DNA of 56,222 nucleotides from Methanobrevibacter sp. (lineage in GTDB: Archaea; Methanobacteriota; Methanobacteria; Methanobacteriales; Methanobacteriaceae), in contig NZ_JAFUHT010000049.1 in the NCBI RefSeq assembly GCF_017468685.1, forward strand, positions 1 to 56,222, given 5' to 3'. The translations under genes and the position numbers were made by a program. Numbering within the stretch: position 1 is the stretch's first letter; every line of letters starts with the position of its first letter. Shown piece after piece: positions 8,034 to 55,234 of this stretch. The notes under the pieces are model-generated. The model saw only the letters and a program-made list of their open reading frames with translations. It searched no databases and had not been told where the DNA came from.

Positions 8034-8227
8034 CTTGATTAAATCGTTAAATAATTAAATTCTATTAAATTGGGCCTAATTATATTTTAGTTTTATTTAT
8101 TGAAGTTTTTTTTAGGACTGTTATTTCTTTTCTGATTTTCTTGTTATTTTAACTAGTTTATTTTATTTTAAATTATTTTTTTTTTAATTTCATGTAAATT
8201 GTTTTTACTTTGGAATATTGACTTAAA

Positions 8228-8270
8228 CTTGTAAAATTGCTTTCATTTACAACAAAAACTATTTAAAATC
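8228..8270 (+). promoter_or_regulatory. Palindromic site next to BRE/TATA; copy A of an element also at 53236
   Basis: TTGTAAA and TTTACAA form 7-bp inverted arms around a 10-base spacer (8229-8252). They are followed at once by a BRE/TATA-like CAAAAACTATTTAAA. About 40 bases here match the sequence before the AAA-ATPase gene at 53339 with only a few differences. This suggests a shared DNA-binding regulator acting at the promoter. No intact gene starts at the expected distance; the nearest is the antitoxin at 8514. Confidence 0.55.
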
Positions 8271-8478
8271 TAAAATTGAATGTTTTGCTTGATATTTGTT
8301 TATATTATTCTAAATAAGAATATATTCAAATTAATGGGAGGTATAAATAATCTCTTAATCGGCTTAAAGAATATATTATCGGTGTTTTAAAAAATAAAGA
8401 AATTATTGTGAGGTATAGTTAATTGAAGAGTTTTGATATTAATGAGGTATTGTTCAAGATTATGGAAACTTATTTATA

Positions 8479-8493
8479 GTATACTGAGTATAC
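8479..8493. promoter_or_regulatory. Putative operator of the toxin-antitoxin operon
   Basis: A perfect 7-bp inverted repeat with one central base, GTATACT-G-AGTATAC, lies 20 bases before the antitoxin start. RelB-type antitoxins usually bind such a palindrome to repress their own operon; binding here is inference. Confidence 0.55.
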
Positions 8494-8513
8494 CATATAT
8501 TTGAGGAATCAAA

Positions 8514-8777
8514 ATGATGACTAAAACTATTAAAATATCCGAAAAAACACATAAATTATTGTCTGAACTTGCATCTAAAAATGAAACTTTCAATGATGTA
8601 ATCTCTTTTTTAATCAATTATTATTATGAAAATGAAGAGTTTAGTGATGAAGAAGCGAAATATTACAATGAGCAAATCGAAAAATTTGAAAATGGAAACA
8701 GGGATGATGTATCTAAAGTCACTTTATCTGATTTAGAAAAACGAATATCAAAATTAGAAAAAGAGCTTAAAAAATGA
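8514..8777 (+). CDS. Antitoxin of a type II toxin-antitoxin pair (RelB/RHH-like)
   Basis: An 87-residue acidic protein. The N-terminal ~40 residues (KTIKISEKTHKLLSELASKNETFNDVI) are the strand-helix-helix of an archaeal ribbon-helix-helix antitoxin. The C-terminal half is charged and coiled-coil-like (LEKRISKLEKELKK), suitable for wrapping the toxin. The stop overlaps the toxin start by 4 bases (ATGA), the usual coupled arrangement. TTGAGGA about 8 bases upstream serves as SD; ATG 8514 and 8517 are equally possible. A palindrome at 8479-8493 is the likely autoregulatory operator. Confidence 0.8.
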   Translation: MMTKTIKISEKTHKLLSELASKNETFNDVISFLINYYYENEEFSDEEAKYYNEQIEKFENGNRDDVSKVTLSDLEKRISKLEKELKK

Positions 8778-9049
8778 CATATGAATTATTTGAACATGAC
8801 CGTGTAAAAAAATTTTTCAAAAAACACAAAAAAGACAAAGCATTACTATTAAGGATTACTAAAAAATATTTTGAGATTTTAAATAATCCGTATCATTCAG
8901 AATTCATCGAATTAAATAGTGTTAAATGCCCTAAATGCCATAGGGCCAGGGTTGGAAATTATAGAATAATTTTTTATGTTTCCGATAATCATCATCAAAT
9001 TGAAATTATTGATATAATCAAACGTAAAACTGATTATAGATTATTTTAA
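8774..9049 (+). CDS. RelE/ParE-superfamily toxin
   Basis: A 91-residue basic protein with the RelE-like layout: two N-terminal helices rich in Lys (FEHDRVKKFFKKHKKDKALLLRI), then the antiparallel sheet with the conserved RARVGNYRIIFYV and a C-terminal KRKTDYRLF. RelE members cleave mRNA on the ribosome; ParE members poison gyrase. The basic residues R-A-R...Y-R and the C-terminal Y-R favour RelE-type RNase activity, but this is not certain. An unusual Cys-x2-Cys (VKCPKCH) precedes the RARVG strand. It overlaps the antitoxin by 4 bases, so it is cotranscribed. Confidence 0.82.
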   Translation: MTYELFEHDRVKKFFKKHKKDKALLLRITKKYFEILNNPYHSEFIELNSVKCPKCHRARVGNYRIIFYVSDNHHQIEIIDIIKRKTDYRLF

Positions 9050-53140: not shown

Positions 53141-53235
53141 AATTTATATTTTATTTCGGGCATTATTTTGTTCTATTTTTTAATTATTTGATTAATAAAT
53201 TTATTATACTATCTTTTAAGCAAAAGTTGTCTGAA

Positions 53236-53274
53236 CTTGTAAAATTGATTTCATTTGCAAGCGAAATTATTTAA
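53236..53274 (+). promoter_or_regulatory. Palindrome plus BRE/TATA promoter of the AAA-ATPase module; copy B of the element at 8228
   Basis: Arms CTTGTAAA (53236-53243) and TTTGCAAG (53254-53261; one G-T mismatch) flank a 10-base spacer. Directly after lies CGAAATTATTTAAA (53262-53275), a good archaeal BRE and TATA. The expected start site is near 53300, 25 bases before the SD GGAGGTGAT of the ATPase gene. The same ~40 bases occur at 8228-8270. Confidence 0.6.
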
Positions 53275-53338
53275 ACAATAAGTTATAAATTGTAATTCAG
53301 TGAAATATTTTTTTACATGAATGATTGGAGGTGATGGT

Positions 53339-54739
53339 ATGGTTAATGATTTGAAGATTAAAAATTTCGGTCCAATCAAAAGTGCAGATTTTAGCATTGC
53401 TCCTTTGACCATCTTTGTCGGACCTAATGCTTCGGGTAAGTCTTATGCTACTCTTTTAATGCATTCGTTGCTAAATCCATTTAATCGGAATATTGATTCT
53501 CAACTTAATTCAGTCAAATCTTTGGAGTACTTGCTTGATGGGGATGGCGACCTTTTCAATGAGTTTAATGAGAATTTTATAAATTATTTGGGGTCTGATT
53601 TTGATTTTTCTGAAATGTCTTTTGAATTTCCGAGTGATAAATTTAACAGGTTGCTTGAATTAGGTGTCGGTAGATTTTACACAGAATCAGTTGAAAATAA
53701 GCTGAAAAGTAATTTTGACAGTTCCCTGGATAATCTTAATAATGTGGTTTTGAATGATTCGTTTAATTTGGAATTTAATGGCATTCATTTTAGAAATGAA
53801 AATAATCATTTGGTAGTGGATGGTTTGCTTGATGCAATTGGGGAGATTAAAATTGAAAATGAGAATTTGATATTGGGTGTTTCAAGAAAAAATGGTAATG
53901 TTGTGATTACTTTGAATCCTATTGCATTGCATTTGAATACCATTAAAAATGAGTATATTCCTTCAATTATTTATGGAATCATATCGGAGGTTTTAATTTA
54001 TAATTTGATAAGTAATTCTTATTATATTCCTGCTTCAAGCTATGCAATATCTAATGATTTAAATGATAATTTATCTAAACAGATTAATGGTGATTTCAAG
54101 GCATCTAAAATAGATAAGGAATTGATGTCATTGCTTTTGAATAATAAGTCTTCTGGCGAAGGATTTTTTAAAAGTATTGCTGTTAAAATGAGTGTGGAAA
54201 TTTTTGGTGGCATTCTTGACTTTAAGGATGTTGATGAGGGTATAAAATTCATTGACACTCAAAACAATGTGGAATTTGATTTCAATTCTGTTTCATCATC
54301 AATAAAGGAATTGGCTCCTTTTATAAAATATTTGTCTGATTTGTCAAGAGAAAATGATACTGTAATCATTGAAGAGCCAGAAAATCATCTTCATCCAAAA
54401 AATCAAAGAATTCTTGTTAAATATTTGGTGGAATTAATCAACCGTGGATTGAATATAATATTGAATACTCATAGTGATTATATTCTGGAGCAGTTTAATA
54501 ATTTCATCAGACTGGGTGGGGTCGATGAGGATAAATTAAATCAGTTGAATTATTCCACTAAACACGTCCTTGACCATGAAGACATTAGAATATATAACTT
54601 TAAAAAGGAATCTGATTATCTGTTTGAAGCGGATTTGGTTGATGTTAATGAAACAGGTTTTGTTGATGAGAATTTCTCTAAAATCACTGATGAATTATAT
54701 GATGAATCTGTAGACATCATTGATTCAATGAAGAGGTGA
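53339..54739 (+). CDS. AAA-type (AAA_15/AAA_21) ATPase, probable defence-module component
   Basis: A 466-residue ABC-like/SMC-fold ATPase. The N-terminal MVNDLKIKNFGPIKSADFSI and Walker A VGPNASGKSYA (residues ~30-39) are typical of AAA_15/AAA_21 proteins. A long helical insertion follows. The C-terminal part has Walker B VIIEEPENHLHP near 342 and the histidine switch LNTHSDYILEQF. Such ATPases occur in OLD-like, RloA and abortive-infection systems. I choose ATG 53339 because GGAGGTGAT sits 3 bases before it; the ATG at 53321 lies upstream of that SD. The partner gene starts 6 bases after its stop, so they form one operon. Confidence 0.85.
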   Translation: MVNDLKIKNFGPIKSADFSIAPLTIFVGPNASGKSYATLLMHSLLNPFNRNIDSQLNSVKSLEYLLDGDGDLFNEFNENFINYLGSDFDFSEMSFEFPSDKFNRLLELGVGRFYTESVENKLKSNFDSSLDNLNNVVLNDSFNLEFNGIHFRNENNHLVVDGLLDAIGEIKIENENLILGVSRKNGNVVITLNPIALHLNTIKNEYIPSIIYGIISEVLIYNLISNSYYIPASSYAISNDLNDNLSKQINGDFKASKIDKELMSLLLNNKSSGEGFFKSIAVKMSVEIFGGILDFKDVDEGIKFIDTQNNVEFDFNSVSSSIKELAPFIKYLSDLSRENDTVIIEEPENHLHPKNQRILVKYLVELINRGLNIILNTHSDYILEQFNNFIRLGGVDEDKLNQLNYSTKHVLDHEDIRIYNFKKESDYLFEADLVDVNETGFVDENFSKITDELYDESVDIIDSMKR

Positions 54740-54745
54740 TTTATT

Positions 54746-55234
54746 GTGATAAGGAAGTTTCTTCAAAGATACTACTCAAACAAGAGCTGTAAGATTGATA
54801 AGATTTTTACAAATAACTGTAAGGAGAATAATTGTAAAATAAGCAATGTTTCTCAGGATAATGTTATTTTGGACGGGGATGAGATTGAAAAATGTTTGAC
54901 CAAGCATCTGAAAAACTCTGCAGATTGAATTATTATTTCATCCAATGGCAATGAATTGACAATTGTTGTTTGTGAATTGTCTAAAGGAAAGCGCAATCCG
55001 GAAGTGATAAAAAGAAAAATGGAACATACAAGCAATCATATTGCAGATATTCTTAAAGGCTCTGAATTTGAAATTGTGCATTTCAGGTGTTGTTTTGTCG
55101 GCAAGTATGAGGATATTTATAAGGGTGTTATGAAAAAGAAATCGCCGGTTGTTAGAATCTCAAATTTGAAAATGCATAATATTGTTATTGATCGTTTTGA
55201 TTGCGGTGTTTCTTTTGATAAGTTGTGCTTATAA
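54746..55234 (+). pseudogene. Partner protein of the AAA-ATPase, interrupted by an in-frame TGA
   Basis: The frame starts at GTG 54746 (AGGTGAT 5 bases upstream) and runs 60 codons to TGA 54926-54928. It then continues in the same frame for another 101 codons to 55234. The joined product of ~161 residues has DEIEKCLTKHLKNSAD before the stop, then IIISSNGNELTIVVCELSKGKR after it, and HTSNHIADIL. The strand-turn-strand with D...E-L-x-K resembles a PD-(D/E)xK-type nuclease core; the spacing is imperfect, so this is a weak guess. A single base change (for example TGT or TGG to TGA) explains the break. Selenocysteine is unlikely in this lineage. Confidence 0.7.

What the first reader, a model, noticed from the sequence alone, without database searches (positions are those of the whole stretch)
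8228..8270. A palindrome-plus-promoter element shared by two accessory loci 45 kb apart
About 40 bases (arms TTGTAAA/TTTACAA, spacer, then BRE/TATA with ATTTAAA) recur at 53236-53275 with few changes. One copy drives the AAA-ATPase defence-like module; the other precedes a decayed region and a toxin-antitoxin pair. A common regulator of mobile or defence genes is a plausible reading.
Basis: partly seen in the sequence, partly recalled or inferred. Interest (0 to 1): 0.6.

Follow-up and report, generated by a model that had tools for sequence, protein, structure and literature searches.

The report
Tandem 19-bp operator arrays in methanogens
The two look-alike promoter pieces are members of a previously undescribed family of strictly 19-base, head-to-tail repeated DNA sites that sit just upstream of the promoters of some 25 accessory genes (toxin-antitoxin, CRISPR cas2-cas1, antiviral-type ATPases and others) in gut methanogens, and so point to one unknown regulator that switches them together.

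Summary
In detail: a 26-mer core plus TATA box occurs at 8227-8267 and 53235-53275, with 0 expected by chance. The palindrome reading does not hold. Each copy is the promoter-proximal end of an array of 19-bp direct repeats (about NTTTGTAAAATTGCTTTCA), followed in the best-preserved copies by TTTNNAAC and a TATA box 11-16 bp on. The window's genome (a Methanobrevibacter) has roughly 27 such arrays; the reversed control pattern finds none. 59 of 66 genomes of the genus and about half of a sister genus carry them; other Methanobacteriales essentially do not. In an unbiased spacing test, 138 of 148 unit pairs lie exactly 19 or 38 bp apart. Most arrays here face a same-strand gene: cas2-cas1, two AAA_15/21 ATPases, Bro-N, HEPN, ParE-type toxin-antitoxin, RNA repair, a nuclease, MarR and a genus-specific JAMM-like family (17 of 29 homologues have an array, against 7 of 143 other genes). 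Best explanation: operator/UAS arrays for one cooperative, unidentified regulator, probably an activator acting next to BRE/TATA. A common regulator is supported; exclusive control of defence or mobile genes is not. A MarR candidate fits poorly.

The parts
8189..8207 (+). degenerate outer repeat unit, copy 1 (TTCATGTAAATTGTTTTTA)
   Evidence: sequence; in phase with the next unit by 19 bp; below scoring threshold
8208..8226 (+). repeat unit, copy 1 (CTTTGGAATATTGACTTAA)
   Evidence: weight-matrix hit 12, 19 bp before the next unit; two-unit pattern 8209-8245, expected 0
8227..8245 (+). promoter-proximal repeat unit, copy 1 (ACTTGTAAAATTGCTTTCA)
8246..8253 (+).
   Evidence: TTTNNAA directly after the last unit in 24/74 arrays against 0.8% control
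8254..8267 (+). BRE-like AAAAAC and TATA box TATTTAAA (8260-8267)
   Evidence: sequence; TATA 14 bp after last unit, as in other arrays
8472..8500 (+). palindrome TAGTATACT-G-AGTATACCATA over a second TATA box: likely the TA operon's own promoter/operator
   Evidence: inverted repeat, conserved in TA orthologues L273-L281
8514..8777 (+). antitoxin-like gene, DUF7557
   Evidence: Pfam PF24434 2.6e-7
8774..9049 (+). ParE-family toxin-like gene
   Evidence: Pfam PF05016 6e-6
53216..53234 (+). degenerate repeat unit, copy 2 (TTAAGCAAAAGTTGTCTGA)
   Evidence: profile hit 53217-53253 E=4.6e-5 in the genome search
53235..53253 (+). promoter-proximal repeat unit, copy 2 (ACTTGTAAAATTGATTTCA)
53254..53275 (+). 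TTTGCAAG junction, BRE-like CGAAAT, TATA box TATTTAAA (53268-53275)
   Evidence: sequence
53321..54739 (+). AAA_15/AAA_21 ATPase, PD-T4-4_A/NsnB-like (likely start 53339 after GGAGGTGAT)
   Evidence: Pfam 1.9e-21; PADLOC PD-T4-4_A 1.1e-38
54746..55234 (+). second gene of the module, interrupted by an in-frame TGA at 54926-54928
   Evidence: ORFs 54746-54928 and 54956-55234 in one frame; no Pfam or PADLOC match

Best explanation
The element is an operator/UAS array. Head-to-tail 19-bp sites (1-5 in this genus, up to 17 in the M. ruminantium-like genome) bind a multimeric DNA-binding regulator side by side and cooperatively. The last site ends 11-16 bp before the TATA box, so the bound protein sits next to BRE-bound TFB/TBP and most likely helps recruit them to the promoter; repression is less likely but possible. 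A set of roughly 25 accessory genes in this genome would thus respond together to one signal, probably stress or invasion. Shown: the arrays, their rigid period and polarity, the promoter position in many arrays, genus-wide occurrence and repeated association with certain gene families. Inferred: that one protein binds them, cooperativity, activation, and the signal.
For: Genome-wide: 43 two-unit matches in G000 against 0 for the reversed control; 97 profile hits at E<=1, about 30 of them strong. Genus: 59 of 66 genomes and 515 matches, controls 0. Period: 95 of 97 neighbouring units at 19 bp and 2 at 38; in a spacing-free search 114 at 19, 24 at 38 and 10 of 148 at all other allowed distances (hand count). 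Only one polarity. Position: in most G000 arrays TTTNNAAC, TATA and a same-strand gene start follow. Recurrent targets across species: JAMM-like family 17/29 with array, 10 of them 82-85 bp from the start codon, against 7/143 other genes, P=8e-11; array-like promoters before TA orthologues L273-L278; Bro-N, Rpn-like, AAA and cas2 cases. Precedent: EarA binds 1-4 tandem sites directly upstream of BRE and is needed for transcription (PMC5512572, PMC10665913).
Against: No expression or binding data. No regulator found: the only candidate met, a MarR orthologue, is missing from the complete genome G011 and from G002 although both have arrays, and 26 of 30 MarR loci have no array. Conservation is patchy: cas2 3/30, AAA ATPase 2/12, and TA 3/11 by the strict test, 6/11 only by a loose one. 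In the M. ruminantium-like genome several arrays face their promoter in the reverse orientation, and some arrays lie behind gene ends with no evident promoter. The promoter statistics lean on arrays found with a 19-bp two-unit seed.
Confidence: 0.7

Rival explanations
1. Neutral minisatellite: tandem repeats that grew by slippage and were scattered by transposition, without regulatory role.
For: Methanobrevibacter ruminantium and M. olleyae are known to be unusually rich in tandem repeats (PMC6749651); arrays in G070 show 57-bp higher-order repeats (3 x 19).
Against: Units within one array differ while core and 19-bp period stay fixed across genera; arrays in G000 sit at a fixed distance before TATA boxes and point at gene starts; the same gene families carry arrays in different species.
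Confidence: 0.12
2. Chromatin element: A-tract arrays that position or exclude archaeal histones or an H-NS-like silencer over acquired genes, rather than a specific transcription factor.
For: AT-rich A4T2 cores; many targets look acquired (IS605 TnpB, integrase, defence genes).
Against: Conserved G and TNA positions and a single polarity imply sequence reading; essentially absent from other Methanobacteriales, which as far as I know also have histones; targets include MntP, thiC-adjacent and pilin genes.
Confidence: 0.1
3. Simple inverted-repeat operator TTGTAAA-N10-TTTACAA bound by a symmetric dimer.
For: Perfect arms in copy 1; TTTNNAA follows the last unit in 24/74 arrays.
Against: TTTRCAA in only 3/74 arrays; arms-only pattern at chance level in the window; tandem units dominate.
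Confidence: 0.04
4. Small part of a mobile element or recent duplication.
For: Some arrays precede TnpB or integrase genes; two arrays in G000 C30 precede an intact and a decayed cas2.
Against: Flanks of the two window copies are unrelated; no match in 2.9 million viral contigs with three exact patterns; arrays differ in sequence and length from site to site.
Confidence: 0.04

Closest known systems
EarA sites upstream of the fla/arl promoter (Methanococcus, Pyrococcus; PMC5512572, PMC10665913)
   Same: One to four short sites in tandem, directly upstream of BRE/TATA at fixed distance; activator thought to recruit TFB.
   Different: EarA sites are 6-8 bp (A(C/G)(C/G)TACA(T/C)), at one operon; here 19-bp units, up to 17 copies, at tens of loci per genome; no EarA was tested.
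Ptr2 and TFB-RF1 activator sites (described in PMC5512572)
   Same: Upstream activating sites next to BRE/TATA; Ptr2 binds several sites.
   Different: Other sequences, few targets, no long arrays.
BldC operators (Streptomyces; PMC5859096)
   Same: Head-to-tail direct repeats of variable number with AATT cores bound by a cooperative filament; many target genes.
   Different: 9-bp site per protomer, bacterial MerR-like protein, bacterial promoters; no BldC homologue was sought here.
Tandem repeats (satellites) of Methanobrevibacter (PMC6749651)
   Same: Repeat-rich M. ruminantium and M. olleyae genomes; the arrays here may be among those counted.
   Different: That survey gives no 19-bp family, no promoter link and no function in its main text.

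Membership tests
Archaeal upstream activating site next to BRE (EarA/Ptr2/TFB-RF1 kind) | Site lies directly upstream of BRE/TATA at a fixed distance | tested here: met
   TATA-like box 11-16 bp after last unit in 27 of 33 arrays with a recognised box; 20 of 53 arrays had none by the pattern used
Archaeal upstream activating site next to BRE (EarA/Ptr2/TFB-RF1 kind) | Known cognate activator and its consensus (e.g. EarA TACA motif) | tested here: not met
   Unit consensus NTTTGTAAAATTGCTTTCA has no TACA motif
Archaeal upstream activating site next to BRE (EarA/Ptr2/TFB-RF1 kind) | Transcription depends on the site | not testable with these tools
   no expression data
BldC-type cooperative direct-repeat operator | Head-to-tail direct repeats in variable number | tested here: met
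BldC-type cooperative direct-repeat operator | 9-bp repeats AATTXXXX(C) bound by BldC | tested here: not met
   period 19 bp; BldC homologue not sought
   TTTRCAA in 3/74; arms-only pattern 9 found, 6 expected
MarR-family operator | Regulator gene co-occurs with the sites and is itself preceded by one | tested here: not met
   genus-level match and weak association (P=0.0009, confounded by genome completeness), but G011 and G002 have arrays without it and only 4/30 MarR loci carry an array
Neutral satellite | No constraint on position or period relative to genes | tested here: not met

The most novel reading that the evidence does not exclude
Methanobrevibacter has a lineage-specific global stress or defence regulon run by one filament-forming transcription factor on 19-bp tandem arrays. 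It would switch on CRISPR adaptation, defence ATPases, toxin-antitoxin genes, RNA repair and small hydrophobic peptides together, somewhat like a bacterial SOS response.
Probability: 0.25. Interest if true: 0.85.

Novelty: new variant of a known kind. Interest (0 to 1): 0.64.

Why it matters
Very little is known about gene regulation in the dominant human-gut and rumen methanogens. A sharply defined operator with tens of copies per genome gives a direct way to fish out its regulator. It would also show whether archaea coordinate defence, toxin-antitoxin and repair genes through one switch. The unit serves as a marker for finding further members of the set, including the unknown JAMM-like family and short hydrophobic peptides.

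Tried and rejected
Palindrome operator: rejected. Duplication of flanking DNA: rejected. MarR (L010/L126) as the regulator: weak association only; counter-examples G011, G002, G072, G076. Viral origin: three exact scans of viral contigs found nothing. Conserved array at cas2 and at the window ATPase across the order: 3/30 and 2/12, not significant. Structure of the JAMM-like family: AlphaFold2 pLDDT 85, best PDB match a BRCC36-type JAMM protein at E=0.02 with TM 0.24, only a hint. Remnant of a gene in 8283-8459: no match in blastn against the fetched loci. Literature searches found no description of the element, but only open-access papers are held.

Full report
Observation. The two copies are real. 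The 26-mer ACTTGTAAAATTGMTTTCATTTRCAA is found exactly at 8227-8252 and 53235-53260 and never in 100 shuffles. Both copies continue to a TATTTAAA box that starts 14 bp after the last unit, and the flanks are unrelated. The arms TTGTAAA/TTTACAA are perfect only in copy 1, and the arms-only pattern is at chance level.

What it is. A search of the genome and 60 relatives with 3 mismatches showed further copies in relatives; several lie in short tandem arrays. Aligning them gave a 19-bp unit, NTTTGTAAAATTGCTTTCA, with a near-invariant GWAAAATTG core. Two units 19 bp apart (up to 3 mismatches) occur 43 times in the window's genome, and the reversed control pattern occurs 0 times. In 150 genomes of the order (2 mismatches) nearly every genome of the window's genus and about half of one sister genus have them, the rest essentially none (59 of 66 genomes and 515 matches in the genus). 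An exact two-unit pattern scanned over 84,980 species hit only three Methanobrevibacter assemblies. One genome of the sister genus has a single contig of 2,937,203 bp, which from memory is the size of M. ruminantium M1. Its arrays have 5-17 units.

The period is the strongest feature. Neighbouring units lie at 19 bp in 95 cases and 38 bp in 2; strong units lie at 19, 38, 57, 76 or 95 bp with two exceptions, and never on opposite strands. These counts come from loci partly found with a 19-bp seed. A search free of that bias, GTAAAATTG-N4..34-GWAAAATTG in 67 genomes, gave 148 pairs; by hand count 114 are at 19 bp, 24 at 38 bp and 10 at all other distances.

Position. In G000 about 27 arrays were read with their surroundings. 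By my reading some 23 have the order array, TTTNNAAC or a relative of it, AT-rich spacer or BRE, TATA box, then a gene on the same strand, usually within 50-230 bp. Exceptions are arrays by IdsA, thiC and a CTP-synthase-like gene, and single units inside genes. In the sister genus several arrays stand in reverse orientation before a promoter, so orientation is not fixed there.

Genes behind the arrays in G000: cas2-cas1 and a decayed cas2 copy; the window AAA ATPase (PD-T4-4_A-like) and a second one (HEC-01A-like) with a HEC-01B-like partner; Bro-N/PDC-S13, HEPN, ERCC4-HHH nuclease, a weak RNA-ligase match, RlaP, MarR; MntP by my own reading of its sequence; the window TA pair. A paralogous family with an invariant E, HxHP and PSxxN pattern resembles a JAMM motif. 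In other genomes: DUF4143 ATPase, McrB-like AAA, RhuM-like, Rpn-like (by eye), SDH protease, TnpB, integrase. Ten other window genes gave one protein with PADLOC matches below 1e-10, in a helicase-like domain; this is too small a background for a formal enrichment test.

Conservation of the link. Homologues of the JAMM-like family occur only in this genus (33 genomes). 17 of 29 have an array upstream, all in the forward orientation and 10 of them 82-85 bp from the start codon, against 7 of 143 other genes in the same set of loci (P=8e-11). TA orthologues in six relatives show units followed by AACAAAAACTWTATTTA-type promoters at a similar distance, though the strict detector accepts only 3 of 11 and a loose one 6 of 11. 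For cas2 (3/30), the window ATPase (2/12) and MarR (4/30) the association is sporadic.

The TA locus. In front of the antitoxin gene lies a second TATA box inside a palindrome, TAGTATACT-G-AGTATACCATA, conserved in the orthologues. The likely reading is an autoregulated TA promoter plus an upstream array promoter.

Mechanism. In archaea activators typically bind upstream of BRE and recruit TBP or TFB; EarA does so through one to four tandem sites at a fixed distance (PMC5512572, PMC10665913). The arrays have that position, so activation is the first guess. Filling of head-to-tail sites in variable number has a bacterial precedent in BldC (PMC5859096). Which protein binds is unknown. A MarR orthologue restricted to the same genera was tested and fits poorly.

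Novelty. Open-access papers on M. ruminantium report many tandem repeats but no such family or function (PMC6749651), and the M1 genome paper has no hit for promoters or transcriptional regulation and mentions repeats only in other senses (PMC2812497). As a kind, tandem upstream sites are known; a lineage-wide, strictly periodic family with tens of targets per genome appears new.

Noticed in passing
window 54746-55234: Gene after the AAA ATPase is interrupted by an in-frame TGA at 54926-54928; the two-gene module is probably inactive here or the partner is a pseudogene.
   Followed up: partly
L192-L195 (M. ruminantium-like genome G070): Arrays stand before genes for hydrophobic peptides of 33-40 residues (e.g. 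MKNINNDLLKDSLEFLKDNSEKILKYSLEILKIFILLMK), resembling small membrane toxins or stress peptides.
   Followed up: partly
L242-L271, alignment A3: Genus-restricted family, often with a hydrophobic N-terminus, with invariant E...HxHP...PSxxN (JAMM-like); no Pfam family for the members tested; best fold match BRCC36-type at E=0.02.
   Followed up: partly
G000 C30:63877-64145 (L131 around 8286): Second, decayed copy of cas2 with its own array and promoter, about 4.8 kb from the intact cas2-cas1.
   Followed up: partly
L147 799-855; L164 693-749 and 2193-2249: Arrays followed by a conserved AATATNGATTNACATTAACNT stretch, in two cases next to thiC in reverse orientation, in two species.
   Followed up: no
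L049, L064, L162, L166: Arrays followed by a conserved GTAATGGCTAATCATAG element, in L162 and L166 near integrase-like genes.
   Followed up: no
L135 3231-4247 and L154 797-2011: Proteasome-like genes (by eye, no Pfam match) in two genera, both with arrays upstream.
   Followed up: no
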